Translations under genes and position numbers: made by a program
Notes under the pieces: generated by a model
The model's database searches: none
What the model was told of the DNA's origin: nothing
Seen by the model: the letters and a program-made list of their open reading frames with translations, nothing else
NCBI GenBank assembly: GCA_005804885.1
Contig: SYOX01000381.1
Location: forward strand, 1-64,000
Direction: 5' to 3'
Source of the DNA: Pseudomonadota bacterium
GTDB taxonomy: Bacteria; Myxococcota_A; Bradymonadia; Bradymonadales; GCA-2716585
Length of the DNA: 64,000 bases
In this document: piece after piece, positions 3,684 through 20,616 of the stretch
How the letters are laid out: every line of letters begins with the position of its first letter
Position numbering within the stretch: position 1 is the first letter of the stretch

Positions 3684-6600
3684 ATGCAAAGCCCACTTCA
3701 CAGCAAGCGCGAAGCCTCCTTCGCAGCGCGCGCCCTGCTCCCCACGCCTGACCGCGCCGTGCGCCCCCTGCTCACCCTCGGACTGGCCGCCCTGCTCTGG
3801 GCCGCGCTGGCCCCTCCGGCGCACGCCCAGGACCCGACCGACGCCCTCCGCCTCCAACCCCCTTCCCTCTCCAGCACCTCGGCCCGGACCAGCCACGGGG
3901 CGCTCTCCCCCGGCGCCCTCGCCGATCCCACCGGCGACCTCGACGGGATCGAGGGTGGCCCGCCCCTCGATCCAGCGATGGCCGACCCCGAAGGCGGGGG
4001 GTCGTCGGCCCAGCCCTCCACAAGGACGCGCAGGATCATCCGCAACGGCGCGTACATCCTCTATTTTTACGAACACGACCCCGTCGACGACGAGACCCTC
4101 CTGCACATCCTCGGGCTCTTCTGGTATCGCGGAAAGCCGGACTGGAAGCTCTTCATCGCCCTGCCCTTGGGCGCCTACTGGCGCTGGAACGACGACCCCA
4201 ACCGCTGGGGGCTGATCTCCCCCCTGGCGTGGCACGTCCAGGACGACGACTTCACCTACACCGGCGCGTGGCTCTATCATCGATATGAGAGCCGCCAGAC
4301 GCGCTTCTCCACCCTCTTCCCGCTCTACTGGAACCACCAGGATCTGGACCTCGACGAAGACCTCCACATCCTCGGCCCCCTCTTCTACAAGACGAGGCCC
4401 GAGGGCTGGAGCGCGGGGCTGGCGCCGATCTTCTGGATGGGCGGCGGGCCGGAGAGCACCTCATGGACCCTGCTGCCGCTGGTCCACTACGAGGACGACG
4501 CCGAGTCCACCCGCCTCTACTCCCCGGCCTTCCTCCACATCCACGACAAGGAGAGCGACAGCCTCTTCGGCGGCATCCCGGCGCTGATGACCTTCTGGAG
4601 CGGCGACGACTACAGCACCTTCGTGATGCAGTTCCCCTTGCTCTTCAAGTACATCGAGGACGACTTCAGGCTGACCCTGGCGGCGGTGCTGCTCCTCGGC
4701 CTTGAGGCGGACGACTGGCGCTTCGGCTCCGTGCTGCCCTTCTTCTTCGGCTACGAGGACGACGAAGACGACTTCCGGCTGCTCCTGCCGGTCCTCTACG
4801 CGCGGTGGTCGGACAAGCGGAGCGACGATCACTTCGGGATGCTCGGCCCGCTCTACACCTGGCGCGATGGCCAGGAGCACGGCGCCGGCCTGTGGCCGCT
4901 GATCAAGTTCGACCAGGACGACATCACCGGCGACGCCACGACGATGATCCTGCCGATCTACTACGCCAGCGACGAGGGCGAGGTGCAGCACCGCTACTTC
5001 CTGCCCTTCCTCTACGGGAGCAGCTTCTTTGACGAGGAGCACCACTGGACCACCCTCGGGCCGCTCTACACCATCGACGACGGCCAGGACCACTACCACG
5101 GCCTCGCGCCCTTCGTGCACGTCCACCAGAACGAGGAGCAGCAGGAGGAGCTGACCATCGTGGCGCCCCTGTACGGGGCCTACGACGACCCTCAGACGCA
5201 CATCCGGCTGCTCGTCCCGCTGCTCTACTTCCGCCACGAAGATCTGGCCCTGGACACCCACCTGATCATCGCCGGCCCCTCCTGGTACAACCGGAGCGTC
5301 GACGACCTCTCCTACGGCGTCGCGCCCTTCTACATCCACTGGGAGAGCGAGGCGCTTGAGCGGGAGTTCACCCTCATCCCTGGGCTCTACTACAACAACG
5401 AGGGGCCGGGGTGGTCGACGACCTTCGTAGGGCCGGCCTTCCATAAGCAGGACGCCGATGGCTCGATGACCGGCGTGCTGCCCCTTGGCCTGTGGCACGA
5501 GGACGACCTGACGCAGACCAGGACGCTTGCGCTGGCGCCGGGGCTCTACTGGTCGGAGGGGCCGGAGCGCAAGCGGATCTTGATCGGGCCGGCCTGGAGC
5601 TTCAGAGACGGGGAGACGAAGAGCGACGGGCTCTTCCCCATCGTGGCGCGGCACGAGGAGGCCGACGGCAGCGGCTTCTTCTTCATGCCGGGCTTCCTCG
5701 ATCTGAGGGTCACCGGGGAGGACGGGTGGGACTTCACCTGGCTGCTGTCGGGCTTCCGGTACAAGAGCCGGGACGGGGTCCGGACGACCATGGTGGCGCC
5801 GCTCTTCCTGGAGACGAGCGACGAGCGAACGGGCGACTACTGGGCGCTGGCGGCGCCGTGGATCTATTTAAGTGGAAATACGCGCACTTACGAGCGCTTC
5901 ATCTTCGCGCCGCCCTTCTTCTACGACCGCGATCTGGACGAGACGGACTGGCTGCTCTTCCCGCTGGCCTTCGGGCACGACGACCGGGAGCTGTCCTATT
6001 GGCTGGCTGGGCCGCTGGCCTTCAAGTACGAAGAGAAGGCGCCCGGCGGCGGCAAGCTGCTGCTCGGCCCGCTGCTCTTCGGGCAGTACACCCGGGGCCT
6101 GAACCCGGATCTGGGGACGCCGGAGGCCCTGCAGGGCGAGCCGGCGACGGACATGGGCTGGCTGGGGCCCTTTGTGTGGAGCGACACCCGCGAGCGGCGC
6201 TTCAGGATGCTCTTCCCCTTGCTCCTGGACTGGAAGGACTTCGAGCACGACGAGAGCTTCATGGCCTTCTTCCCGCTCTACTTCCAGTGGAAGCAGCAGG
6301 TGGAGGGGATCCAGCGCAGGCTGGACGCCTACGTGCCGCTCTATGTCCGCTACAGCGAGCTGATGCCCGACGGCACCGAGGAGTCCTTCCACGGCCTCGG
6401 GCCGCTCTTCGCCTACAGCGGCAGGAGCGGTTACGGGCTTGGGGCCTTCCCCCTCTTCTGGCACGACCGGAGCACGGCGGAGGCCGGCGAATCGGGGCAC
6501 GACATCGTCTTCCCGCTGGTGTGGCACTTCTTCAACGAGGGAGAGGGGACCCGCTCGGTGGTGGCCGGGCCGGTGTACAGCTTCAAGGAGCCGGGGGAGC

Positions 6601-8717
6601 AGAGCTACGGCGTGATCCCGCTCTGGTTCCACAAGACGGCCTGGTCGGAGGCCGGCGAGCAGGGCTATGACGCGGTCTTTCCCTTGTACTGGTATGGGTT
6701 TGGGAGGGACGAGGCGGGTCAGGAGGCGGCGACGCTGCTGACGCCGGCGGGCTTCTATCGGCGCGAGGGGGAGAGCCGCTACGGGCTGGTGCTCAACTAC
6801 TACTTCTCGCGGGAGGGGGAGGAGGCCACCGACTTCCTCTTCCCCCTGGTCTACAGCCACCGCGATGAGACGGAGGACACGCTCTTCGTGGCGCCGCTCT
6901 ACTATCACACGGAGACGCCCTCGTACTCGGCGCGGCTGCTCGCGCCGCTCTACTTTCACGCGGAGGACAGGATCGAGGATACGGAGGTGACGCTCCTCTT
7001 CCCCTACCTGGGGACGAAGACGCCCGAGTCCGAGATCGACATGGTCCTGCCGCTCTTCTTTCAGGAGCGGACCCGCGACGGGGATCTCTTCCGGCTCATC
7101 GCGCCGCTCTACCTCCAGTTGGAGGACGGGGTGACGGGATCGCAGTTCGTGGCGGCCGGGCCGATCTGGTATTCCGGAGATGGGGCGGGGGGTTACGACA
7201 CGGGGGCCTTCCCCTTGCTGTGGTGGGGGGAGAGCGCCGACGGGAAAGACGGCTACTTCGTGGGGGCGCCCTTGTTCTGGCGCTTCACCCTGAACGGCGG
7301 GCAGGACACGTGGACGGTGCTGACGCCCTTGTGGCACCACGAGGACGAGGAGGGCAGCGCGGCGGGCTTGTTCCCGCTGGCGTGGTGGGGCGAGGGGGCC
7401 GACGGGGTCGACGGCCACTCGGTGCTGGCGCCGGTGTGGTGGCGCTTCGTGTCGGGGGGCGGGCGAGATCGGTGGACGGTGTTGACGCCCTTGTGGCACC
7501 ACGCGGACGAGGAGGGGGCGACGTCGGCGGGCTTGTTCCCGCTCTACTGGTGGAGGGAGGAGGCCAACGGGGTCGACGGCCACTCGGTCTTCTTCCCGGT
7601 GTGGTGGCGCTTCGTGTCGGACCAGGGGGCGGATCAGTGGACCTCGCTGGGGCCGCTGTGGCTTCACGACCACCCGGAGGGCTGGTCGGCGGGGCTCTTC
7701 CCGCTGGCCTTCGCGCAGCGCGACGGCGAGGACACGAGGATGGGGGTTTTCCCCTTTTATTACAGCAATGTGGAGGACGTGCAGACGACGGTGGCCTTCC
7801 CGCTCTACTTCGGCAGGCGGTGGGACGATGGGGCGGGGAGCTTCGACACGATCCTGGGGCTCTACTGGGGCTGGGAGGACAAGGAGGAGGAGGTCAGCGG
7901 GCAGCTCCTGGGGCCGCTCTACCACTTTGAGGACGGCGAAGCGAGCACGACGGGGCTCTTCCCGCTGGCGAACTGGAGCCACGATCCCGAGGAGGGGGAC
8001 ACGGGCTGGCTGCTGCCGGTGGCCTATTACGATCGGTCGGCCGACGGCGCGGACATGCGGGTGGTGGCCGGGCCGGCCTTCTACGATCGGGACGAGGAGG
8101 GGACGGACTGGGGTCTGGCGCCGCTCTTCTGGAGCTTCGAGCGTGAGGCGGCCAGCGGCAGCATGCTCCTGCCGGCCTACTTCTACGAGGGGAGAGACGA
8201 GGGGCACACCTTCATCAGCCCGGTGGCGTACTCGAGGCGGGAGGGGGAGGTGTGGAACGCCTGGTCGCTGCTCTACGCCGGCGGGGGCGACGCCATGGGG
8301 AGCTGGCATACGGTGTTGCCGCTCTTCTACGGGCGGCGCAGCAACGACGGGTCGAGCTTTGACATCGCCCTGCCCTTCTACCTCAACTTCAAGCAGCCTG
8401 GGGGCCGGTCCGGCGGGACGGTGCTCTTCCCGCTCTACTGGAACTTCTACAACGAGGATTCGGGGAGCGACGCGACGGTGCTCTTCCCGCTCTACTGGCA
8501 TTTCCTCAATGACAAGAGGGAGTTGACGTTGCTCCTGCCCTGGTTCCATTCCCAGCGCAAGGACATCGACCGGGTCACGCACGGGCTGGTGCCGCTCTAC
8601 TATTACAGTCGGGATCCGAGCGGCTACACCTTCCAGCTCATGGGCGGTATCTTCGGGGTTGACCACACGAGGGCGGAGGACAAGACCGACTATCAGCTGC
8701 TGTGGATACCCTTCTGA
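3684..8717 (+). CDS. Giant secreted aromatic-repeat protein (LFPLYW-type repeats)
   Basis: This 1677-residue protein has an N-terminal signal peptide: a hydrophobic stretch at about residues 29-44, with likely cleavage after AHA near residue 48. From about residue 115 to the C-terminus it is made of some 65-70 short repeats of about 20-25 residues. The core is hydrophobic-x-P-L-aromatic-aromatic (for example LFPLYW, GPLYTW, LLPVLYA), followed by an acidic turn such as YEDDEDD or HEDEEG. The alternation of aromatic strands and acidic turns suggests a chain of beta-hairpins, either an outer-membrane barrel-like structure or a beta-solenoid; some units resemble the PFYWN strands of LptD. I know no named family for it. 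It ends abruptly with YQLLWIPF. The gene is monocistronic, with a sigma-54 promoter upstream. Confidence 0.85.
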   Translation: MQSPLHSKREASFAARALLPTPDRAVRPLLTLGLAALLWAALAPPAHAQDPTDALRLQPPSLSSTSARTSHGALSPGALADPTGDLDGIEGGPPLDPAMADPEGGGSSAQPSTRTRRIIRNGAYILYFYEHDPVDDETLLHILGLFWYRGKPDWKLFIALPLGAYWRWNDDPNRWGLISPLAWHVQDDDFTYTGAWLYHRYESRQTRFSTLFPLYWNHQDLDLDEDLHILGPLFYKTRPEGWSAGLAPIFWMGGGPESTSWTLLPLVHYEDDAESTRLYSPAFLHIHDKESDSLFGGIPALMTFWSGDDYSTFVMQFPLLFKYIEDDFRLTLAAVLLLGLEADDWRFGSVLPFFFGYEDDEDDFRLLLPVLYARWSDKRSDDHFGMLGPLYTWRDGQEHGAGLWPLIKFDQDDITGDATTMILPIYYASDEGEVQHRYFLPFLYGSSFFDEEHHWTTLGPLYTIDDGQDHYHGLAPFVHVHQNEEQQEELTIVAPLYGAYDDPQTHIRLLVPLLYFRHEDLALDTHLIIAGPSWYNRSVDDLSYGVAPFYIHWESEALEREFTLIPGLYYNNEGPGWSTTFVGPAFHKQDADGSMTGVLPLGLWHEDDLTQTRTLALAPGLYWSEGPERKRILIGPAWSFRDGETKSDGLFPIVARHEEADGSGFFFMPGFLDLRVTGEDGWDFTWLLSGFRYKSRDGVRTTMVAPLFLETSDERTGDYWALAAPWIYLSGNTRTYERFIFAPPFFYDRDLDETDWLLFPLAFGHDDRELSYWLAGPLAFKYEEKAPGGGKLLLGPLLFGQYTRGLNPDLGTPEALQGEPATDMGWLGPFVWSDTRERRFRMLFPLLLDWKDFEHDESFMAFFPLYFQWKQQVEGIQRRLDAYVPLYVRYSELMPDGTEESFHGLGPLFAYSGRSGYGLGAFPLFWHDRSTAEAGESGHDIVFPLVWHFFNEGEGTRSVVAGPVYSFKEPGEQSYGVIPLWFHKTAWSEAGEQGYDAVFPLYWYGFGRDEAGQEAATLLTPAGFYRREGESRYGLVLNYYFSREGEEATDFLFPLVYSHRDETEDTLFVAPLYYHTETPSYSARLLAPLYFHAEDRIEDTEVTLLFPYLGTKTPESEIDMVLPLFFQERTRDGDLFRLIAPLYLQLEDGVTGSQFVAAGPIWYSGDGAGGYDTGAFPLLWWGESADGKDGYFVGAPLFWRFTLNGGQDTWTVLTPLWHHEDEEGSAAGLFPLAWWGEGADGVDGHSVLAPVWWRFVSGGGRDRWTVLTPLWHHADEEGATSAGLFPLYWWREEANGVDGHSVFFPVWWRFVSDQGADQWTSLGPLWLHDHPEGWSAGLFPLAFAQRDGEDTRMGVFPFYYSNVEDVQTTVAFPLYFGRRWDDGAGSFDTILGLYWGWEDKEEEVSGQLLGPLYHFEDGEASTTGLFPLANWSHDPEEGDTGWLLPVAYYDRSADGADMRVVAGPAFYDRDEEGTDWGLAPLFWSFEREAASGSMLLPAYFYEGRDEGHTFISPVAYSRREGEVWNAWSLLYAGGGDAMGSWHTVLPLFYGRRSNDGSSFDIALPFYLNFKQPGGRSGGTVLFPLYWNFYNEDSGSDATVLFPLYWHFLNDKRELTLLLPWFHSQRKDIDRVTHGLVPLYYYSRDPSGYTFQLMGGIFGVDHTRAEDKTDYQLLWIPF

Positions 8718-8842: not shown

Positions 8843-9763
8843 ATGGGCCTGAGCGAGAAGAAGTTTCAGCGGATGAACGTCCCCTCGGGCAAGCGGGTCA
8901 CGGCCGGGCTGGGCGTGCACGCGCACCCGGCGCTGTCGCCGAAGGGGCGCTGGATGGCGTGGGCGGCCGAGGGCGGAGGGGACGTCCACATCTACGTCGG
9001 CGACAGGCAGGGGCGGCTCGGGCGGCAGATCAGCGGCGGCCACGGGGTCCACGCGCGAGCGGCCTGGTCCCCGGATGGCCGCACGATCGCCTACGGGCTG
9101 CGCAAGACCGAGCAGGGGCGCTGGCAGATCTGGCTTGGCGACAGGATCGACGCCGCGCTGACGCGGGTCCTGCTCAGCAGCACGCGCTTCAACTACCAGT
9201 TCCCGGCCTTCAGCCCGGAGGGCGGCAGCCTCGTCTTCTCCTCGACGCAGGGCTCGTCCGACGACACCTACAACCTCTGGCGCGTCGATCTGTCCACCGG
9301 CGAGAAGGAGCAGCTGACCGAGGCCGCCGGCCGCAATGACATGCTGCCGCGCTTTGATCCTTCGGGCCAGCGGCTGATCTTCAGCGCGGCGCCGGCCGGG
9401 GATCTGGCCGCGACGCACCTCTACAGCCTGGATCTCGAGTCGCGGGGCGAGGAGAGGCTCACGGGCGGCAAGAAAGCCATGGAGGACGCGATCCTGGTCG
9501 ACAGCCGCGTGGCCATCTGCACCCGGCGCGGCAAGAAGGGGCCCTCGCTCGTCGCGCTGGATCTGGAGCGCGGGGCGACGCTGATGCTGGTCGAGGACGC
9601 CCGCCACCCCACCGCGCGGGTGGACGCCGATGGGATCGTCGAGCTGGCCTGGACGGGCTCGGCGGGCGTGCCTGGGATCTACAGAGGGGAGCTGGCAGAC
9701 TTCAAGGCCGAGCGGAGCGCGCGCCCCGTCGCGAGCGATCTGGAGAAGCAAGCGCGATCATGA
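8843..9763 (+). CDS. TolB/WD40-like beta-propeller protein
   Basis: This 306-residue protein contains several PD40/WD40-like blades: HPALSPKGRWMAWAA, RAAWSPDGRTIAYGL, FPAFSPEGGSLVFSS and LPRFDPSGQRLIFSA. Each is followed by a strand ending in an IWLGD- or LWRVD-type motif, as in TolB and the DPP-IV N-terminal propeller. No signal peptide is visible, so it is probably cytoplasmic. A GGAGG ribosome site lies just upstream of the ATG. The gene overlaps the following membrane-protein gene by 4 bp. A scaffold or sensor role is usual for such propellers, but the partner is unknown. Confidence 0.8.
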   Translation: MGLSEKKFQRMNVPSGKRVTAGLGVHAHPALSPKGRWMAWAAEGGGDVHIYVGDRQGRLGRQISGGHGVHARAAWSPDGRTIAYGLRKTEQGRWQIWLGDRIDAALTRVLLSSTRFNYQFPAFSPEGGSLVFSSTQGSSDDTYNLWRVDLSTGEKEQLTEAAGRNDMLPRFDPSGQRLIFSAAPAGDLAATHLYSLDLESRGEERLTGGKKAMEDAILVDSRVAICTRRGKKGPSLVALDLERGATLMLVEDARHPTARVDADGIVELAWTGSAGVPGIYRGELADFKAERSARPVASDLEKQARS

Positions 9764-10249: not shown

Positions 10250-10651
10250 ATGAGCCAGAATCTGCCGCCCGCCCCCTACCGGCCTCAGCCCCTGGCCCCC
10301 CACGAAGAGAACAACTGGGCGATGGCGAGCCACCTGAGCACGCTGGCCGGCCACCTCGTGCCCTTCGGCCACATCCTTGGGCCGCTGGCGATCTGGCTGA
10401 TGAAGAAGGACCAGTCGGCCAAGGTCGAGCTTCACGCCCGAGAGGCGATCAACTTCCAGATCACGATGACGCTCGGCATGGTCGTGGGCCTGCTGCTCTC
10501 CGTCGTGCTGATCGGCATCCCCATCCTGATCGGGCTCTACATCTTTGATCTGGTCGTGACCATCCAGGCCACGATGAAGGCCAAGGACGGGCTCCACTTC
10601 GACTACCCCATGACGATCCGCTTCATCCCCTCTCCCCACGGCTCGCCCTGA
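10250..10651 (+). CDS. DUF4870 family membrane protein
   Basis: This 133-residue protein has a Pro-rich N-terminus, then NNWAMASHLSTLAGHLVPFG, LGPLAIWLMKKDQS and HAREAINFQITM, followed by a two-helix hydrophobic hairpin. These are the diagnostic blocks of DUF4870 (Tic20-like) proteins. The family is widespread and of unknown function. I start it at ATG 10250, preceded by GGAGGAG. Its 3' end overlaps the convergent HEAT-repeat gene by 29 bp. Confidence 0.88.
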   Translation: MSQNLPPAPYRPQPLAPHEENNWAMASHLSTLAGHLVPFGHILGPLAIWLMKKDQSAKVELHAREAINFQITMTLGMVVGLLLSVVLIGIPILIGLYIFDLVVTIQATMKAKDGLHFDYPMTIRFIPSPHGSP

Positions 10652-12083
10652 ACTCAGGCAGCAGATCCTTGGTGCGGCGCTGGGCGTCGAGCACCTCGGA
10701 GAGCCGTATCGGGTGGTCGCGGGGGATCCTGGCTCGAAGGAACCGAAGCCCAGCGGGCAGCTGGCCGCCGTGGTGCTGACCCGGGGTCCTTGAGAGCCCG
10801 GCCAGGAAGCCGTGGACGAGCTCCAGCGCGGTGGTGTTCGATCCCCACGACCACCCGGCGCCGCCGTCGACGCGGACCTCCAGGTTCTCGACGGGGACGT
10901 CGTGCGCCACGCACCACCCCCACCCCCAGCGCACCGCCTCGACGAAGGCCGGCAGCCTTGATCGGTTGAAGCGGCGGGACTGGGCCCTCTTCTCGACCGT
11001 CTTGAGCACCTGGGTGAACCAGGGTTCGTGGGCGCCGGTCAGCAGCAGGTGGATGGGCAGGAGCGCCCCGGGCGCGTCGGGCAGGTTCAGCGCGTCAAAG
11101 GCCGAGCCCTTCGGCCAGCACGCGGGCCTGATCTTGGCCTCGACGTCCCAGCCGGCGACCCCGTGCTCGACCAGATAGTCGATGCCCAGGTCGAGCCCCC
11201 TGCCCTCGCGCAAGCGCTCAAGAACATTGCAGATCCTGGCGACCGCCACGGGCGCGGCCCCCTCGTAGACGAGGGCGCGCAGCTCAGAGAGCGCCTCGCT
11301 GACGCCCAGCGACGCGGCGGGATCGTAGGTGCCCTGGTCCGCGCCGCTGAGTTGGGCCGCCAGGCCCCTCATGATCGGATCGCACGAGGCCCGCGCCTCG
11401 GTCAGCGCGGCCCGCGCGACCCCGGAGCGCTCCGAGGCCAGCGCCGCCTCGATCCAGGGCACCGCGGCGGCGTCGGCCAGCAGGCTCAGGCACCGCGCGG
11501 CCCCGACCCGCTCGTGGGCCCTGGGCGACTCCAACAGGGCCCTCAGGCGCCCCGACGACTCGGGGCAGGTCGCCGCGATGTGCCTCGCCGCCTGATCCTG
11601 CACCCCCGTGGCGGTGTCGGCGAGCATGTGAAGGTCGAGATCGATCCCGTGCCCGCCCTTGGCGCACGACCACCGGTAGATCGCGAGGCGGTGTTCGTGG
11701 CGCTCCTCGCCCAGCACGTGGCGGATCTGCGCCTGCAGGTCCTCCTTGAAGATCTTCGAGAGCAGGTCGAGCCGCTCGCTCGCGCTCTTCGTCGAGGGCA
11801 GGCCGAGGCCCTCCAGGCCAAGCGCGATCGCCATGGGCGAGCCCTTGTTGGCGCCCAGCGTCGTCCACCAGACCCTGTCGACGGTGTGGATTCTCCACGG
11901 CATCGACTGGCCGGTCCAATGGTAGACCTCGCGCAGGAAGGGCAAGCCCTCCCCGAGCCATCTCTCCCACTCGCCGCTCCAGTCACTCTGGAGCGCCAAT
12001 CTCATGGTCTTCTGGAGGTCGTCCGGATAGTGGCTGATCTTCAGCCAGGCGCTCAGGGCCTCTCGGGCGACAAAAAATGTCAC
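10623..12083 (-). CDS. HEAT-like repeat protein of unknown function
   Basis: This 486-residue soluble protein has a middle part (about residues 150-240) of Ala/Leu-rich helical pairs, such as RLRALLESPRAHERVGAARC and AVPWIEAALASERSGVARA, typical of HEAT repeats. The N-terminal part is rich in Trp. No catalytic motif is visible. The gene starts at GTG four bases after the upstream membrane-protein gene, so it is probably co-transcribed with it. Its last 29 bp overlap the end of the convergent DUF4870 gene. Confidence 0.7.
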   Translation of the reverse strand: MTFFVAREALSAWLKISHYPDDLQKTMRLALQSDWSGEWERWLGEGLPFLREVYHWTGQSMPWRIHTVDRVWWTTLGANKGSPMAIALGLEGLGLPSTKSASERLDLLSKIFKEDLQAQIRHVLGEERHEHRLAIYRWSCAKGGHGIDLDLHMLADTATGVQDQAARHIAATCPESSGRLRALLESPRAHERVGAARCLSLLADAAAVPWIEAALASERSGVARAALTEARASCDPIMRGLAAQLSGADQGTYDPAASLGVSEALSELRALVYEGAAPVAVARICNVLERLREGRGLDLGIDYLVEHGVAGWDVEAKIRPACWPKGSAFDALNLPDAPGALLPIHLLLTGAHEPWFTQVLKTVEKRAQSRRFNRSRLPAFVEAVRWGWGWCVAHDVPVENLEVRVDGGAGWSWGSNTTALELVHGFLAGLSRTPGQHHGGQLPAGLRFLRARIPRDHPIRLSEVLDAQRRTKDLLPEFRASRGERG

Positions 12084-12501: not shown

Positions 12502-12763
12502 TGGACCTCCTCGGGTGCGGGGCGTGCGAGCGCGCCGGAGACCCTTCTTTGGGGATGGCGGCGAGCGCAAGCAAGCGCAAGACAAGCATAAGATATGCTG
12601 GTCCGCTCTTTGCACTCTTCAAGGCAAGGAGCTTTTTATCCAAGGGTTGAAGCGGCAATGGCTACTCATCTTCAACCTCGACACCATCATGGTGACAACA
12701 TTCGTTGTCAAAAACATGGCAAAGGGTCGCAAAAATTGTCACCGGATCCAGGAGCAGGAAGTC
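12502..12763. promoter_or_regulatory. AT-richer divergent regulatory region with inverted repeats
   Basis: This gap is visibly richer in A and T than the rest of the window and separates divergent genes. It holds a perfect inverted repeat TGACAAC-ATTC-GTTGTCA at 12693-12710, with a further TTGTCACC at 12736-12743 that mirrors GGTGACAA at 12691-12698. A second short palindrome, GCATA-AGA-TATGC, is at 12586-12598. The repeated TGACAA half-sites look like an operator for the giant gene downstream. No clear -35/-10 or -24/-12 promoter could be placed. Confidence 0.5.
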
Positions 12764-15700
12764 ATGAGGACACAACAGGTCATCAATCCCCGCGAGACTA
12801 GAAACTCACTTGGGGGAGAGTTCGCCGAGTGGATGCGGCGATCTCCCGCGTTGGGGTTGGGTTTGGCCACGATCTTGATGGCCGCAGGGCCGGCCCAGGC
12901 GGCCCCGCCGGTGGCGCAGACCCAGAACGTGTCGACGAACGAGAACCAGACGGTCAACATCACGTTGACGGGCTCGGACGCGGATGGGGACTCGCTGCGC
13001 TTCGGCATCACCGACCAGCCGGACCGCGGCTCGCTGTCGTTCAACTTCATCTCGGGGTGCACCAAGCTCCAGGCCTTCAACTACAACCCCAACGCTGACA
13101 ACGACGACGGCAGCTGCCGCTACACGTCGTGCCGCCAGATCAAGCTGGCAGATCCCAACGCCACCACGGGCAACTACACCATCGATCCGGACGGCACTGG
13201 CTCCTTCGGCGCGCTGACGGTCCACTGCGACATGACGACGGACGGCGGTGGCTACACCATGCTCAACGTCGACAGCGGCATCAACACCTTCCGCAGCACG
13301 GACCACAACTCGTGCAGGGCGATGGGCCTCAACATGGTGGTGCCGAGGACGAAGGAGCACTGGCGCTCGCTGCTCAACCGCTACGGCACCTCGTACTTCA
13401 ACACCATCCCCGGCATCTCCAAGCCCTCCAGCGGCGGCAACTACACCGGCTTCGCCATGCGCTCCGGCTCGGTGCCCGACTGGCGGGCCCTCGACGGCGG
13501 CTCGTGGTTCATTCGCGACTCGCCCTACAGCGAGCCCAACGGCGACTACGAGGCCAACTGCTGGCTGTTGATGTACAACTTCGACGTCAACAACATCCAG
13601 TTCAACGACGGCACCTGCTCCTACTCCACGTCGCGCTACATCTGCTCCACCAACGACAAGGCCGGAGTGGAGAACCTCGGCGGAGTCGCCTCCTGCGCGA
13701 CGATCAAGCTCAATGACCCCAACGCCGCCAGCGGCAACTACACCCTCACCACCTCGACCGGCGCCCGGGTCACGGCCTTCTGCGACATGACGACGGACGG
13801 CGGCGGCTACACGATGGTGCCTGTGGACAGCGGCATCCGCACCTCCCGCAGCACGGACAACGACTCGTGCAAGGCGATGGGGCTCAACATGGTGGTGCCG
13901 AGGACGAAGGAGCACTGGCGCTCGCTGCTCAACCGCTTCGGCACCTCGTACTTCAACACCATCCCCGGCATCTCCAAGCCCGGCGGCGGCGGCAACTACA
14001 CCGGCTTCGCCATGCGCTCCGGCTCGGTGCCCGACTGGCGGGCCCTCGACGGCGGCTCGTGGTTCATGCGCGACTCGCCCTACAGCGAGCCCAACGGCGA
14101 CTACGACGGCAACTGCTGGCTGTTGATGTACAACTTCGACGTCAACAACATCCAGTTCAACGACGGCGGCTGCTCCTACTCCACCACCCGCTACATCTGC
14201 TCCACCAACGACAAGGACGGGCCGCTGGTCCGGGACACGGGGCTGCGCACCTGCCAGGAGATCCTCAGGGCCAACCCCAGCGCCCCCTCCGGCAACTACA
14301 CCCTCCGCCCGAAGCAGGGCGTCACCGTGTCGGCCTACTGCGACATGAGCACCGACGGCGGCGGCTACACGGCGGTGGCGATCGACGACGGCATCCGCAC
14401 CTTCCGCAGCACCGACAACGACTCCTGCAAGGCCCTCGGTCTGGACATGGTCATCCCCCGCACCAAGGCCCACTTCAACAGCCTGCTGAGCCGCTTCGGC
14501 ACGTCCTACTTCGGCACCGTCCCGGGCATCTCCAAGCCCACCAACGGCGGGAACTACACCAACTTCACCATGAACTCCAAGGCGGGTATCATCGACTGGC
14601 GCGCCACCGACAACGGCCAATGGTGGCTGCGCGACACCCCCTACAGCGAGCCCAACGGCGACTACACCGCCAACTGCTGGCTGTCGATGTACCACTTTGA
14701 CATCAACGATCTGCGCTACAACGACGGCAACTGCTCCTACTCCACCACCCGCTACATCTGCTCCTCCAACGACAAGAAGGGCTTTGAGCAGATCAGCGCA
14801 CAGCGCCGAACCTGCGCGACGATCAAGCAGGGTGACCCCAACGCCGTCAGCGGCAACTACACCATCACCACCTCGACCGGCGCCCAGGTCACGGCCTTCT
14901 GCGACATGACGACGGACGGCGGCGGCTACACGATGGTGCCTGTGGACAGCGGCATCAACACCTTCCGCAGCACGGACAACGACTCGTGCAAGGCGATGGG
15001 TCTCAACATGGTGGTGCCTCGGACCAAGGAGCACTGGCGCTCGATGCTCAACCGCTTCGGCCAGTCCTACTTCAACACCATCCCCGGCATCTCCAAGCCC
15101 GGCGGCGGCGGCAACTACACCAGCTTCGCCATGCGCTCCGGCTCGGTGCCCGACTGGCGGGCCCTCGACGGCGGCTCGTGGTTCATGCGCGACACCCCCT
15201 ACAGCGAGCCCAACGGCGACTACGACGGCAACTGCTGGCTGCTGCAGTACGACTGGAACGTGGACAACATCCGCTTCAACGACGGCGGCTGCTCCTACTC
15301 CACGTCGCGCTACATCTGCTCCACCAACGACAAGGACGGGCCCCTGCGTCCCCCGGTCAGCTTCCGCTCCTGCGCCGAGATCAAGCGCGCCACCCCCAAC
15401 GCCGCCACCGGCAACTACACCATCGTGACCGAGACCGGCCGCGCGGTGACGGCCTACTGCGACATGACGACGGACGGCGGCGGCTACACGATGGTGCCGG
15501 TGGACAGCGGCATTCGCACCTCCCGCGTCAGCGACATGGACTCCTGCCGTGAGATGGGCCTCCAGATGATCGTCCCGCGCACCAGGGCGCACTGGGTGTC
15601 GATGCTGGGCCGCTTCGGCCAGTCCTACTTCAACACCATCCCCGGCATCTCCAAGCCCTTCGACGGCGGCAACTACACCGGCTTCGCCATGAAGTCCGGC

Positions 15701-18700
15701 TCGGTGCCCGACTGGCGGGCCATCGACGGCGGCTCGTGGTTCATGCGCAACTCGCCCTACAGCGAGCCCAACGGCGACTACAGCCAGAACTGCTGGCTGC
15801 TTCAGTACCACTGGGACGTGGACAACATCCAGTACAACGACGGCGGCTGCTCCTACTCCACCGCCCGGTACCTCTGCTCCACCAACGACAAGGACGGCGA
15901 CATCACGCTGCCGAAGTCGTGCATGGCCATCAAGCTGCTCAACCCCAACGCCGCCAGCGGCAACTACGACATCAACCCCGGCCGCGGCCGCCTCACCGTC
16001 CACTGCGACATGACCACCGACGGCGGTGGTTACACCATGCTCAACATCGACAGCGGCATCACCACCTCCCGCATCACCGACCGCGACACCTGCAAGGACC
16101 TCGGCATGCAGATGGTGGTGCCGAGGACGAAGGAGCACTGGCGCTCGCTGCTGAGCCGCTACGGCACCTCCTACTTCAACACCATCCCCGCCATCGCCAA
16201 GCCCCACAGCGGCGGCAACTACACCGGCTTCGCGATGAAGTTCGGCTCGGTGCCTGACTGGCAGGCCATCGACCTCGGCTCGTGGTTCATGCGCGACTCG
16301 CCCTTCGGCGAGCCCAACGGTGATTACACCGAGAACTGCTGGCTGCTTCAGTACAACTGGGATGTGAACAACATCCAGTTCAACGACGCCAACTGCGCCT
16401 ACTCCACGTCGCGCTACATCTGCTCCACCAACGACAAGGATCCGGACCCCAACTTCCAGCGCTTCCAGAACCAGACCCGCCCGCCGGCGAGGACCTCGAT
16501 CTCCGGCACCTACACGCCGGCCAATGGCTACTTTGGCACCGACTTCTTCGACTTCCGCGTCACCGATCCCGGCGGTGAGACCTCCACCGCCCGCGTCAAC
16601 ATCACGGTCATCTCCGTCAACGTGGCCCCCGTGGCCCAGAACCAGTCCGTCTCCGTCGCCGAGGACGGCACCCTCAACATCACCCTCGTCGCCACCGATG
16701 GCGACGGCGACAGCCTCACCTACACCCTCCTGACCAACCCCGGCCAGGGCACCCTGACGGGCACGGCGCCCAACCTCACCTACCGCCCGGCGGCCAACTT
16801 CAACGGCTCGGATTCGCTTACGTTCCGGGTCAACGACGGCACGGTCAACTCCAACACCGCCACCGTCTCCATCACCGTCACCCCCGTCAACGACACCCCC
16901 GTCGCCAACGCCCAGAGCGTGACCACGAACGAGGACACCCCCGTCACCATCACGCTGACCGGCTCGGACATCGACGGCAACACGCTGACCTACTCGCTCG
17001 TGTCCAACCCCACCCGTGGCGCGATCTCCTGCACGGGCGCGGTCTGCACCTACACGCCGACGGCCAACCTCAACGGCGCGGATTCGTTCATCTTCCGGGT
17101 CAACGACGGCACCGTCTTCTCCGCCAACGCCACCGTCTCCGTCACCGTCAACGCCGTCAACGACACCCCCGTCGCCAACAACGGCACGGCGGTCGTCAAC
17201 GAGGACAGCTCCGTCGGCATCGTCCTGACCGGCTCGGACGTCGACGGCAACACGCTGACCTACACGGTCGTGACCAACCCGACGCGCGGCACCCTGAGCG
17301 GCACCGTGCCCAACCTGACCTACACGCCGACGGCCAACCTCAACGGCGCGGATTCGTTCACCTTCCGGGTCAACGACGGCACGGTCAACTCCGCCAACGC
17401 CACCGTCTCCATCACCATCAACCCGGTCAACGACGTCCCCGTCGCCAACGTCCAGAGCGTGACCACGAACGAGGACACCTCCCGCAGCATCACGCTGACC
17501 GGCTCGGACATCGACGGCAACACGCTGACCTACTCGCTCGTGTCCAACCCGTCTCAAGGCGCCCTGTCCTGCACGGGCCCCGCCTGCACCTACACCCCGA
17601 ATCTCAACTACAACGGCGCGGATTCGTTCATCTTCCGGGTCCACGACGGCACCGTCTTCTCCGCCAACGCCACCGTCTCCATCACCGTCACCTCCGTCAA
17701 TGACGCCCCCGTGGCCAACGCCGCCAACGTCTCGACCAACGAGGACACCTCCGTGGCGATCGTCCTGACCGCCACCGACGCCGACGGCAACGCCCTGACC
17801 TTCACCGTGACCACGCAACCTCTGCGCGGCACCCTGACGGGCACGGCGCCCAACCTCGTCTACCGACCCAACACCAACTTCAACGGCGCCGACTCGCTCA
17901 GCTTCAAGGTCAACGACGGCACCATCGACTCGGCCATCGTGAACGTCTCGATCACCGTCAACCCCGTCAACGACGCCCCGGTCGCCGACACCCGTGCCCT
18001 CCAGACCAACGAGGATACGCCGCTGACCCTGACCCTGACCGGCTCGGACGTCGACACTGGCACCACGCTGACCTTCGCCACCCTGACCACCCCCAGCAAC
18101 GGCACCCTGACCTGCACGGGCGCCGCCTGCACCTACCGCCCCGCGGCCAACTTCAACGGCGACGACTCCTTCCTCTTCAGGGTCAACGACGGCGCGCTGA
18201 ACTCGGCGCCCGCCGCCATCACCATCACCGTCAACGCCGTCAACGACCAGCCCGTCGCGGCCACCCAGAACGTCACGACCAACGAGGACACGGCTCGCAA
18301 CATCGTCCTGACCGGCACGGACGTCGACGGCAACCCTCTGACCTTCGAGGTCATGAGCAACCCGACGCGCGGCGCCCTCTCGGGCACGGCGCCCAACCTG
18401 ACCTACACGCCGACGGCCAACGCCAACGGCGCGGATTCGTTCGCCTTCCGGGTCAACGACGGCACGGTCAACTCCACCATCGCCGTGGTCAACATCACCA
18501 TCACGCCCGTCAACGACGCCCCGGTCGCCCAGCCTCGCAACCTGTCCACCGACGAGAACATCGCCGTCAGCCTCACGCTGACCGCCACGGACGTCGACGG
18601 CGACGCGCTGACCTTCTCGGTCACCCGCGATCCCGCCAACGGGCGGCTCTCGGGCGTCGCGCCCAACCTGACCTACACGCCCAACAACGGCTTCCTGGGC

Positions 18701-20461
18701 GTCGACACCTTCAACTTCCGCGCCTTTGACGGGGGGCTCGACAACGAGGCGACGGTCACCGTCACCGTCCGCAACCCCGGTCTGGAGCCGCCGGCCCTCA
18801 CCATCGACACCGCGAGCCTCTGGTTCGGCGCCGGGCAGACCCTGCAGGCCCGCATGACCGATGGCCGCTGCCAGACCCCCCCCACCGTCGCCGTCACCCC
18901 CACGAGCATTACGCTGGCCGTGACCAACCTCCAGAACGGCGGCTGGCAGCTCACCTCGCCCGTCCTGCCCCAGGGCACCTACAACGCCTCGATCACCGTC
19001 ACCAGCCGGTGCAGTGACAGGACCACGGTCGCCACGCGGGTCTTCGGCGTCGACACCACGCGCCCGGACATCGTCTACGGCGAGCTCCCCCAGAACGGCG
19101 TCAACCCCAACGACATCACCACCTGGCCCATCAAGTCCCTGCTTGAGGAGCTTCCCATCAACAGCCTGCTGCGCGACCCCCTCAGCGGCGTCGCCTCGGC
19201 CTCGACCACGCTCTTCGCCCTGGATCGCAACAACCAGTCCTTTGCGCTCCACAGCGGCAACTTCACCACGCGCACCGGCGCGCCCCCGACGGGCCTGACG
19301 GTCACGACCGCCTCGCTCTGCTCCAACGTCCAGCACTGCAACAACGGCCGCCTGCGCCTTGAGCCCCTCGAAGGCGACCGCTTCATGCTCAGGATCCAGC
19401 TCACCGACGTGGCCGGCAACGTCCGCGTGTCCGACTTCCTCTTCCGCGTTGCGCGCTTGCGGCCCAGCATCGTGGCCTGGAGGGAGGCGCTCGTCGCCCT
19501 GACGAGCAACAACACCCAGGCCAACAACGCGCGCCTGGCCGCCATCGCCAAGCTCGACATCGCGCTGGAGGGCTTCGACAACAACTACATCGGCAACATG
19601 GTCCTCACCCTGGAGGACGCCGAGGCGCTCAGCCGCGTCGCGCGCGCCTTCGACACCCGAGTCGACACCCGCCCGCAGGCCCTGCTGGTGGCCAACCTCA
19701 CCCACCGCTTCTTCGTCGAGGAGCTGAAGATCGTCGAGAACGAGTTTGGCCTGCTCGGACCCGTGCAGACCGCAGACACCCACCTCGACCTGGCGCGCGG
19801 CCACATCGACATCGAGGCCAGCGGCGACGCGCTGCTCTCGTGCGCCAACGCCTACTTCTACATGGAGATGCCGCGCATGCCGGAGATCGTCGAGAACTTC
19901 GGGACCACGCGCTCGCTCATCAACCAGATCATCGGCGAGATGGACACCTACATCACCCACAACCCCGTCCTGGCCGGCCGCACCCAGGTCGCCGTGGCCC
20001 GCACCGAGTTGAGCATCGTGCGCGACTTCATCGTCCGGGTTGTCACCAACGGCGACACCTCCCTGAGCGACCTTGAGCACCTGCGCCTCCTGCTCGGGCT
20101 GGCCAATGTCGCCCAGCAGATCAAGGTCGTCGAGGAGGCCGGCGTCTGGGTGCGCAACTGGCAGTGGGGCCTGACGCAGATCGTCCACCTCTACGCCGAC
20201 CGCGGTCTGCGCAACACGCGCTCCCGCCTTGGCCTCTTCAGCCCCATGCTGACCGAGGGTGAGAATCAGCTGGCCCGCGCCGTGGTGCACCGCGGTCGCC
20301 AGGAGGCGGACGACTACATGACGCTGCTGATCAACTCGCGTTGCGTCATGATCGGGCTCTACAATCTGGTCTTCGAGCCCAACGAGGCCATTCCCACGGC
20401 CTGCTGCGCTGACATGCTCCGCTACAGAGGCATCGACAGCCGCGTTCCCATCTGCCAGTAG
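12764..20461 (+). CDS. Giant exported protein: six fibrinogen-like domains nested in tandem-95 repeats
   Basis: This 2565-residue protein has a long signal peptide with likely cleavage after AQA near residue 47. A tandem-95 Ig-like repeat starts at about residue 48 (VSTNENQTVNITLTGSDADG) but is interrupted near residue 93. The insert carries a GCTKLQAFNYNPNADNDDGS module, then six fibrinogen-C-like domains of about 186 residues starting near residues 123, 311, 496, 683, 869 and 1052. Each has CDMTTDGGGYT, NGDYxxNCW and CSYSTxRYICS. The broken repeat resumes at GTYTPANGYFGTDFFDFRV (about residue 1247). Eight full 90-residue repeats follow (about 1286-2006), then a C-terminal module of about 560 residues shared with the next gene. 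It is probably a cell-surface adhesin or carbohydrate binder. The ATG has AGGAGC upstream. Confidence 0.88.
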   Translation: MRTQQVINPRETRNSLGGEFAEWMRRSPALGLGLATILMAAGPAQAAPPVAQTQNVSTNENQTVNITLTGSDADGDSLRFGITDQPDRGSLSFNFISGCTKLQAFNYNPNADNDDGSCRYTSCRQIKLADPNATTGNYTIDPDGTGSFGALTVHCDMTTDGGGYTMLNVDSGINTFRSTDHNSCRAMGLNMVVPRTKEHWRSLLNRYGTSYFNTIPGISKPSSGGNYTGFAMRSGSVPDWRALDGGSWFIRDSPYSEPNGDYEANCWLLMYNFDVNNIQFNDGTCSYSTSRYICSTNDKAGVENLGGVASCATIKLNDPNAASGNYTLTTSTGARVTAFCDMTTDGGGYTMVPVDSGIRTSRSTDNDSCKAMGLNMVVPRTKEHWRSLLNRFGTSYFNTIPGISKPGGGGNYTGFAMRSGSVPDWRALDGGSWFMRDSPYSEPNGDYDGNCWLLMYNFDVNNIQFNDGGCSYSTTRYICSTNDKDGPLVRDTGLRTCQEILRANPSAPSGNYTLRPKQGVTVSAYCDMSTDGGGYTAVAIDDGIRTFRSTDNDSCKALGLDMVIPRTKAHFNSLLSRFGTSYFGTVPGISKPTNGGNYTNFTMNSKAGIIDWRATDNGQWWLRDTPYSEPNGDYTANCWLSMYHFDINDLRYNDGNCSYSTTRYICSSNDKKGFEQISAQRRTCATIKQGDPNAVSGNYTITTSTGAQVTAFCDMTTDGGGYTMVPVDSGINTFRSTDNDSCKAMGLNMVVPRTKEHWRSMLNRFGQSYFNTIPGISKPGGGGNYTSFAMRSGSVPDWRALDGGSWFMRDTPYSEPNGDYDGNCWLLQYDWNVDNIRFNDGGCSYSTSRYICSTNDKDGPLRPPVSFRSCAEIKRATPNAATGNYTIVTETGRAVTAYCDMTTDGGGYTMVPVDSGIRTSRVSDMDSCREMGLQMIVPRTRAHWVSMLGRFGQSYFNTIPGISKPFDGGNYTGFAMKSGSVPDWRAIDGGSWFMRNSPYSEPNGDYSQNCWLLQYHWDVDNIQYNDGGCSYSTARYLCSTNDKDGDITLPKSCMAIKLLNPNAASGNYDINPGRGRLTVHCDMTTDGGGYTMLNIDSGITTSRITDRDTCKDLGMQMVVPRTKEHWRSLLSRYGTSYFNTIPAIAKPHSGGNYTGFAMKFGSVPDWQAIDLGSWFMRDSPFGEPNGDYTENCWLLQYNWDVNNIQFNDANCAYSTSRYICSTNDKDPDPNFQRFQNQTRPPARTSISGTYTPANGYFGTDFFDFRVTDPGGETSTARVNITVISVNVAPVAQNQSVSVAEDGTLNITLVATDGDGDSLTYTLLTNPGQGTLTGTAPNLTYRPAANFNGSDSLTFRVNDGTVNSNTATVSITVTPVNDTPVANAQSVTTNEDTPVTITLTGSDIDGNTLTYSLVSNPTRGAISCTGAVCTYTPTANLNGADSFIFRVNDGTVFSANATVSVTVNAVNDTPVANNGTAVVNEDSSVGIVLTGSDVDGNTLTYTVVTNPTRGTLSGTVPNLTYTPTANLNGADSFTFRVNDGTVNSANATVSITINPVNDVPVANVQSVTTNEDTSRSITLTGSDIDGNTLTYSLVSNPSQGALSCTGPACTYTPNLNYNGADSFIFRVHDGTVFSANATVSITVTSVNDAPVANAANVSTNEDTSVAIVLTATDADGNALTFTVTTQPLRGTLTGTAPNLVYRPNTNFNGADSLSFKVNDGTIDSAIVNVSITVNPVNDAPVADTRALQTNEDTPLTLTLTGSDVDTGTTLTFATLTTPSNGTLTCTGAACTYRPAANFNGDDSFLFRVNDGALNSAPAAITITVNAVNDQPVAATQNVTTNEDTARNIVLTGTDVDGNPLTFEVMSNPTRGALSGTAPNLTYTPTANANGADSFAFRVNDGTVNSTIAVVNITITPVNDAPVAQPRNLSTDENIAVSLTLTATDVDGDALTFSVTRDPANGRLSGVAPNLTYTPNNGFLGVDTFNFRAFDGGLDNEATVTVTVRNPGLEPPALTIDTASLWFGAGQTLQARMTDGRCQTPPTVAVTPTSITLAVTNLQNGGWQLTSPVLPQGTYNASITVTSRCSDRTTVATRVFGVDTTRPDIVYGELPQNGVNPNDITTWPIKSLLEELPINSLLRDPLSGVASASTTLFALDRNNQSFALHSGNFTTRTGAPPTGLTVTTASLCSNVQHCNNGRLRLEPLEGDRFMLRIQLTDVAGNVRVSDFLFRVARLRPSIVAWREALVALTSNNTQANNARLAAIAKLDIALEGFDNNYIGNMVLTLEDAEALSRVARAFDTRVDTRPQALLVANLTHRFFVEELKIVENEFGLLGPVQTADTHLDLARGHIDIEASGDALLSCANAYFYMEMPRMPEIVENFGTTRSLINQIIGEMDTYITHNPVLAGRTQVAVARTELSIVRDFIVRVVTNGDTSLSDLEHLRLLLGLANVAQQIKVVEEAGVWVRNWQWGLTQIVHLYADRGLRNTRSRLGLFSPMLTEGENQLARAVVHRGRQEADDYMTLLINSRCVMIGLYNLVFEPNEAIPTACCADMLRYRGIDSRVPICQ
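13131..16440 (+). repeat. Array of six fibrinogen-like domain repeats (about 560 bp each)
   Basis: The six units start near 13131, 13696, 14250, 14811, 15370 and 15919. Long blocks are identical or nearly so at DNA level, for example ATGGTGGTGCCGAGGACGAA in units 1, 2 and 6, and TTCAACACCATCCCCGGCAT in units 1, 2, 4 and 5. This points to recent duplication or gene conversion. Confidence 0.85.
16620..18780 (+). repeat. Eight 270-bp tandem-95 repeat units
   Basis: The period is about 270 bp (90 residues), with recurring blocks such as GGCGCGGATTCGTTC and TTCCGGGTCAACGACGGCAC. Alternate units carry a CTGxxC loop, a likely disulfide, where the others have GTAPN. Units 2, 4 and 6 have the CTGxxC form. 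Confidence 0.85.
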
Positions 20462-20616
20462 CTCCGGAGCGAGAGCCCTTGCGCGGACTCAGCAAACCGG
20501 CCATCATGTCTCCAACAGGCAACATACAGCCGCAGGCGACGTCATCTCCTTATCAAGAGTTGACGCCGCCTGCGCGCCGTACCTACTTTCCACCCTCCTA
20601 TTCATCAGGAGCTCAT

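What the first reader, a model, noticed from the sequence alone, without database searches (positions are those of the whole stretch)
3684..8717. Giant secreted protein built from about 65-70 aromatic LFPLYW-type repeats
Almost the whole 1677-residue protein consists of units of about 20-25 residues with the core hydrophobic-x-P-L-aromatic-aromatic and acidic turns. It matches no named repeat family I know. The pattern looks like consecutive beta-hairpins; some units resemble the PFYWN strands of LptD. It could be an extremely large barrel, a solenoid or an amyloid-like surface fibre.
Basis: partly seen in the sequence, partly recalled or inferred. Interest (0 to 1): 0.85.

Follow-up and report, generated by a model that had tools for sequence, protein, structure and literature searches.

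The report
Giant exported beta-hairpin ribbon protein
This bacterial gene makes a very long exported protein that appears to fold into one continuous ribbon of more than 80 small beta-hairpins, each with a greasy, proline-tipped end, and it is the longest member found of an undescribed protein family spread through the Myxococcota, with distant kin in Leptospira.

Summary
The 1677-aa ORF is a conserved gene, but the array has about 82-84 units of 16-22 aa (mean ~18), not 65-70 of 20-25. Cores: 76 against 17.5 +/- 3.7 in shuffles. Homologues: a 57%-identical ortholog in a sister genome, and profile matches in 78 of 379 phylum genomes. No Pfam model matches. The only named relative is NCBIfam NF047486 (LA_1737_Cterm, function unknown): below cut-off for the window, above it for two relatives.

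Two independent tests give the fold. AlphaFold2 on a ~450-aa relative (pLDDT 87.8) shows 49 short strands, two per unit. Coevolution over 1342 unit pairs shows in-register pairing across the proline and across the acidic turn, and none of the pairing that long membrane-spanning strands would need. So this is an antiparallel meander of short hairpins, one turn FPL-like and greasy, the other acidic. Porin/LptD barrels and propellers do not fit. Structural resemblances are local only (OspA, CPAP TCP domain, YD shells; TM <= 0.31).

Function is inferred: an exported envelope ribbon whose greasy edge is buried in the outer membrane or against another ribbon edge. Novelty: new variant of the hairpin-sheet kind, as an undescribed family.

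The parts
3684..8717 (+). Gene of the 1677-aa hairpin-ribbon protein
   Evidence: ORF with coding-type G+C at codon positions 0.64/0.45/0.93; sister-genome ortholog L012 57% identical
3684..3827 (+). Export signal, cleavage expected after AHA (residue 48); not a lipoprotein (no Cys)
   Evidence: Read from the sequence; the same kind of N-terminus in L012 and in small relatives L094 and L079; no signal-peptide predictor was available
3828..4028 (+). Low-complexity linker, residues 49-115
   Evidence: Sequence; poorly conserved against L012
4029..8714 (+). Array of about 84 hairpin units, residues 116-1677: strand a - hydrophobic x-P-L turn - strand b - acidic turn
   Evidence: count and spacing; unit profile; coevolution; AF2 of residues 821-1677, pLDDT 67.7, short strands throughout
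5019..5231 (+). Residues 446-516, four whole units absent from the sister ortholog
   Evidence: Alignment A2
6087..6158 (+). Insertion loop in one acidic turn (YTRGLNPDLGTPEALQGEPATDMG)
   Evidence: spacing 33; variable against L012
7488..7652 (+). Residues 1269-1323, three whole units absent from the sister ortholog
   Evidence: Alignment A2
8625..8714 (+). C-terminal motif ..GGIFGVDHTRAEDKTDYQLLWIPF, shared through much of the family as GL.GY.R.G....L.L.WIPF
8843..9763 (+). Next gene, PD40 (WD40-like) protein; possible operon partner in this family only
   Evidence: Pfam PF07676 5e-21; a like-sized gene with similar N-terminus follows in L012; an MFS-like gene (by eye) follows instead in L005

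Best explanation
The gene encodes an exported structural protein of the cell envelope. After removal of a signal peptide it folds into one continuous antiparallel beta-ribbon of about 84 hairpins (about 165-170 short strands). Every second turn is a short, length-constant hydrophobic x-P-L turn; the turns between are acidic, polar and variable in length. Residues -3 to +3 around each proline are hydrophobic on both faces, so the ribbon has one greasy proline edge and one polar acidic edge. Inferred: the greasy edge is buried, either in a leaflet of the outer membrane with W/Y/F and R next to it at the interface, or against another proline edge, while the acidic edge faces outwards. At 4.8 A per strand the ribbon would be up to about 80 nm long, so it works as a long surface or periplasmic scaffold or fibre. 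Length evolves by gain and loss of hairpin blocks. Shown by computation: export-type N-terminus, repeat, hairpin pairing, family, block indels. Inferred: location, burial of the proline edge, scaffold role.
For: Repeat and regularity. Orthologs and phylum-wide homologues (profile A1 hits the window at 7.6e-23). AF2 of the compact relative: 49 strands in 448 aa, pLDDT 87.8; window segment: same strand pattern, pLDDT 67.7, 70-86 over long stretches. Coevolution: pairing across Pro 10.3 SD and across the acidic turn 5.8 SD above shuffles, peaking at offset 0; long-strand pairing -4.3 SD. The Pro-turn result holds separately in large (5.1) and small (3.9) members; the acidic-turn result is 4.1 in small members but only 1.9 in large ones. 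Best local structural matches are antiparallel meanders: OspA, CPAP TCP domain, axonemal central-pair proteins, teneurin YD shell. Unit profile: no charge at -2 to +2; hydrophobic 90% at -2 and +2.
Against: Model coordinates could not be inspected; pTM is only 0.44 and 0.31 and all TM-scores are 0.31 or below, so global shape (flat, coiled, folded back, closed ring) is unknown. Coevolution in the window's own family alone is too thin to decide (165 pairs, 1.8 SD at offset 0). No experiment, no localisation data, no functional neighbour in common between lineages. Burial of the proline edge in membrane is inference from composition.
Confidence: 0.6

Rival explanations
1. A giant outer-membrane beta-barrel: each unit is one ~14-residue membrane-spanning strand with the proline in the middle, giving about 84 strands.
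For: Unit length (~18 aa) and a hydrophobic centre with polar ends fit an up-and-down barrel; C-terminal ..LLWIPF ends in Phe.
Against: Pairing a_n:b_n+1 required by this model is absent (-4.3 SD) while hairpin pairing across Pro is strong. AF2 breaks the units into two 5-6 residue strands. No barrel in the top 50 Foldseek matches. Block indels come in odd as well as even numbers of units, which would flip strand direction. Both faces are hydrophobic near the proline.
Confidence: 0.1
2. A hollow shell or cocoon made by a spiralling hairpin sheet, as in YD-repeat proteins (teneurins, Rhs), perhaps enclosing something.
For: Teneurin and Rhs shells are among the best matches of the window segment, and both use ~20-aa hairpin repeats. 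Superunits of 3-4 hairpins starting with GP suggest a regular turn.
Against: TM-scores about 0.1. The repeat continues to the last residue, so there is no C-terminal cargo domain. Small members have only about 25 units and unit numbers vary, which a closed shell would not easily tolerate. No RHS/YD Pfam match.
Confidence: 0.12
3. An adhesive or amyloid-like surface fibre: the ribbons stack by their proline edges or faces into cross-beta fibres in the extracellular matrix.
For: In-register pairing of equivalent positions makes cross-strand residue ladders as in cross-beta sheets; high aromatic content (F+W+Y 18%); the window also codes two very long cadherin/Big repeat surface-type proteins.
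Against: No amyloid family match; usually one locus per genome, unlike many matrix fibres; in Polyangiales-type members the gene is tied to hisS rather than to a secretion system.
Confidence: 0.15
4. A string of beta-propellers, hairpins making blades.
For: DDB1, a three-propeller protein, is a leading local match of the window segment; the next gene is a PD40 protein.
Against: TM <= 0.14; no WD40, PD40 or kelch Pfam match in the ORF; the well-predicted 448-aa model matches no propeller globally; pairing continues from unit to unit.
Confidence: 0.03

Closest known systems
NCBIfam NF047486, LA_1737_Cterm (Leptospira LA_1737 family protein, function unknown)
   Same: Same repeat by profile: window 33.2 bits, L012 47.7, relatives L061 86.1 and L014 60.9 against a cut-off of 60; 17 of 20 small members match at E below 1, best 1.1e-10.
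   Different: Window is below the curated cut-off; the model is 158 positions and the window array is ten times that; no function or paper found.
CPAP/SAS-4 TCP domain (G-box), PDB 4bxr
   Same: Free-standing antiparallel single-layer meander, about 20 strands at about 9 residues per strand, prolines and glycines in the turns (PMC3776556); Foldseek prob 1.00, TMt 0.30.
   Different: Eukaryotic, hydrated on both sides with no hydrophobic core, turns often PDG, intracellular proline-peptide binder; no sequence match.
Borrelia OspA single-layer sheet and its engineered extensions
   Same: Single-layer antiparallel hairpin sheet; prob up to 1.00, TMt 0.16-0.31; a bacterial surface protein.
   Different: Lipoprotein with capping domains, polar central sheet, no proline turns, several-fold fewer strands (own knowledge).
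YD-repeat shells (teneurin, Rhs)
   Same: One hairpin per ~20-aa repeat, long continuous sheet; leading match of the window segment.
   Different: Form a closed shell with other domains; no RHS/YD match and no such domain here; TM about 0.1.
LptD barrel
   Same: A short PFYW-like string.
   Different: Barrel of long strands; no Pfam LptD match; the pairing test speaks against long strands.

Membership tests
NF047486 LA_1737 family | Score at or above the curated cut-off of 60 bits | tested here: not met
   Window 33.2 bits, E 4.5e-8; met by relatives L061 (86.1) and L014 (60.9)
NF047486 LA_1737 family | Homology of the repeat | tested here: met
   Chain of significant matches: window - A1 profile (7.6e-23); 17 of 20 A1 members - NF047486 (best 1.1e-10)
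Single-layer antiparallel hairpin sheets (works like) | Consecutive short antiparallel strands joined by tight turns | tested here: met
   AF2 DSSP and coevolution
Single-layer antiparallel hairpin sheets (works like) | Sheet free on both sides, no second layer | tested here: inconclusive
   Local matches to OspA and TCP only; coordinates not available and pTM low
Outer-membrane beta-barrel / LptD | Long strands, each paired with the next along its whole length | tested here: not met
   a_n:b_n+1 pairing absent, -4.3 SD
Outer-membrane beta-barrel / LptD | Match to a barrel family or fold | tested here: not met
   No Pfam match; no barrel in top 50 PDB matches
YD-repeat (teneurin/Rhs) | Match to the YD/RHS repeat model | tested here: not met
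   No Pfam RHS or YD match
YD-repeat (teneurin/Rhs) | Closed hollow shell | tested here: inconclusive
   Local matches at TM about 0.1; global shape not determined
MORN repeat | Match to the MORN model | tested here: not met
   No Pfam MORN match

The most novel reading that the evidence does not exclude
A new class of envelope protein: an intramolecular cross-beta ribbon up to ~80 nm long whose proline-aromatic edge lies as a continuous keel in one leaflet of the outer membrane, used by Myxococcota and spirochaetes to stiffen, shape or bridge the outer membrane.
Probability: 0.25. Interest if true: 0.85.

Novelty: new variant of a known kind. Interest (0 to 1): 0.6.

Why it matters
Natural proteins made only of an uninterrupted hairpin sheet are very rare (the TCP domain was called unique, PMC3776556; OspA has one in its centre). 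A family of them reaching about 84 hairpins, with a hydrophobic edge, would be a natural model for cross-beta stability and for how a beta protein can lie along a membrane. The family is in about a fifth of sampled Myxococcota genomes, reaches Leptospira by profile, and has neither a Pfam model nor a function. In Polyangiales-type genomes it is tightly linked to hisS, which makes it accessible to genetics.

Tried and rejected
LptD or porin barrel: rejected by coevolution, AF2 and Foldseek. Face-amphipathic apoB-like belt: apoB appears in the matches but hydrophobicity here is banded by distance from the proline, not alternating. Plain mutual information was dominated by unit types and was replaced by direct coupling with offset controls. 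Plasmid records: no match. PDB by sequence: none. Viral contig scan: alignment A3 had no usable conserved stretch. Viral fold library: only weak local matches, several of them tail fibres. LA_1737 in papers: nothing relevant. Giant barrel or single-layer repeat papers for Myxococcota: nothing. Two family scans failed on wrong coordinates of a neighbour and were repeated. A neighbour gene in L047/L072 that looked LptA/LptD-like by eye has no Pfam match. RNA families in the window: none.

Full report
WHAT IS THERE. The ORF at 3684-8717 (+) is a real gene: 1677 codons with G+C of 0.64, 0.45 and 0.93 at the three codon positions. An ortholog in a sister genome (L012) is 57% identical over its length, and its third codon positions differ about twice as often as its second (0.51 against 0.25). 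It starts with an export-type N-terminus and a low-complexity linker; from about residue 116 to the last residue it is a repeat. By a loose motif there are 76 proline cores where composition shuffles give 17.5 +/- 3.7, and 68 of 75 gaps are 15-22 aa where random placement gives 12.3 +/- 3.2. Counting units that lost the proline there are about 82-84 units.

UNIT ANATOMY. Pooling 1966 units from 64 non-redundant homologues: positions -2 and +2 around the proline are 90% hydrophobic, positions -2 to +2 carry practically no charge, +1 is mostly Leu, +3 is W/F/Y, +4 and +6 are often Arg, and the stretch from about +7 to -7 of the next unit is rich in D, G, P, E. Length variation lies in the acidic turn (16 to 22 aa and occasional large insertions). 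A Gly before the proline marks about every third or fourth unit and is then nearly always followed by a 16-aa gap, giving superunits of 3 (52-55 aa) or 4 (71-72 aa). The window differs from its ortholog by just such blocks, 71 and 55 aa.

FOLD. AlphaFold2 on a compact relative (L058, 448 aa, 20 sequences) gives pLDDT 87.8 and 49 short strands, about nine residues per strand, i.e. two strands per unit. On the window's own residues 821-1677 it gives the same pattern at lower confidence (67.7, with 70-86 over long stretches). Coordinates are not exposed by the tool, so topology was tested independently by direct-coupling analysis of neighbouring units. Residue -k couples with +k in the same unit (a hairpin around the proline) 10.3 SD above column shuffles, and +k couples with -k of the next unit (a hairpin around the acidic turn) 5.8 SD above, 10.0 SD for the spacing of 17. 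Both peaks are at offset 0. The pairing needed if each unit were one long strand is absent (-4.3 SD). Split by size, the Pro-turn peak holds in large (5.1) and small (3.9) members; the acidic-turn peak is 4.1 in small members and 1.9 in large ones. For spacing 16 the acidic-turn peak is spread over neighbouring offsets. The window's own family is too small for the test alone.

STRUCTURAL NEIGHBOURS. Foldseek finds only local meander similarity: OspA and its mutants, the CPAP TCP domain, axonemal central-pair proteins, ApoB, teneurins for the small model; teneurins, DDB1, Rhs for the window piece. The TM-scores listed are 0.31 or below, so there is no global match and no barrel or propeller. 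The TCP domain is a free-standing single-layer sheet of about 20 antiparallel strands with no hydrophobic core (PMC3776556). The present repeat has the same pitch but a greasy edge.

FAMILY. No Pfam model above its cut-off matches the window, the repeats of seven large relatives, or the 20 small ones. NCBIfam NF047486 (LA_1737, Leptospira) matches the window at 33 bits, below its cut-off of 60, but passes in L061 (86.1) and L014 (60.9). The A1 profile hits 78 of 379 phylum genomes, the window at 7.6e-23, usually one locus per genome. It was not found in the sampled genomes of the other family of the same order. Named records are Polyangium, Sorangium cellulosum, Labilithrix, Myxococcaceae and other Myxococcota. 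Lengths run from about 540 to 1677 aa; the window's is the longest seen. Other phyla could not be searched.

NEIGHBOURHOOD. In the window the upstream divergent genes include a hexapeptide acyltransferase, a family 2 glycosyltransferase and an LPG_synthase_TM protein, and downstream lie a PD40 protein, DUF6463 and DUF4870; L012 keeps most of this order, judged by eye. In Polyangiales-type members hisS lies directly upstream on the same strand in 45 of 55 loci, most of the rest being cut by the contig end. In five loci with large members, an exported-looking ~190-220-aa protein of unknown family precedes it. No single partner is shared by all lineages, so neighbours do not reveal function.

MECHANISM. 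Shown by computation: export-type N-terminus, continuous short hairpins, a hydrophobic proline edge and a polar acidic edge, growth by whole hairpin blocks. Inferred: such an edge must be buried, in a membrane leaflet or against a second proline edge, and a ribbon of up to about 80 nm (170 strands at 4.8 A) is best explained as a structural element of the envelope. I give the whole explanation 0.6, resting mainly on the ribbon architecture (alone about 0.8); the envelope scaffold role taken alone is about 0.4.

NOVELTY. The kind (single-layer hairpin sheet) is known; the hydrophobic proline-edged repeat, its length and its family are not described in Pfam or in the papers that could be searched.

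Noticed in passing
window 12515-20461 (+): 2648-aa protein with fibrinogen-C/COLFI-like modules in its N-terminal half followed by about ten Big_9/cadherin-like domains; a surface-adhesin look.
   Followed up: partly
window 20479-27300 (+): 2273-aa protein with about 18 Big_9/cadherin-like domains, directly downstream of the former.
   Followed up: partly
L077-L131 (55 loci), e.g. L115:8157-11383: hisS (histidyl-tRNA synthetase) lies directly upstream of the compact family member, same strand, in 45 of 55 loci, in some with a 4-base overlap; reason unknown.
   Followed up: partly
L014:4326-4892, L061:8269-8850(-), L064:4717-5337, L066:3581-4144, L128:6975-7646: Similar-looking ~190-220 aa exported protein (..EVVTLIDNTQVAGRLLHYYDGVLVVETSTGEKLELPRDK..) directly upstream of large members; no Pfam match above cut-off.
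   Followed up: partly
L063 residues 37-56 and similar in L014, L061, L062, L064, L066: Large relatives carry a short Cys-rich EB/Myxo_Cys_RPT-like module between signal peptide and repeats, weak scores.
   Followed up: no
L067 and L071: Large members lie beside genes that look by eye like plsX/fabD fatty-acid synthesis genes in two genera.
   Followed up: no
window 10623-12083 (-): 486-aa protein with no Pfam match.
   Followed up: no
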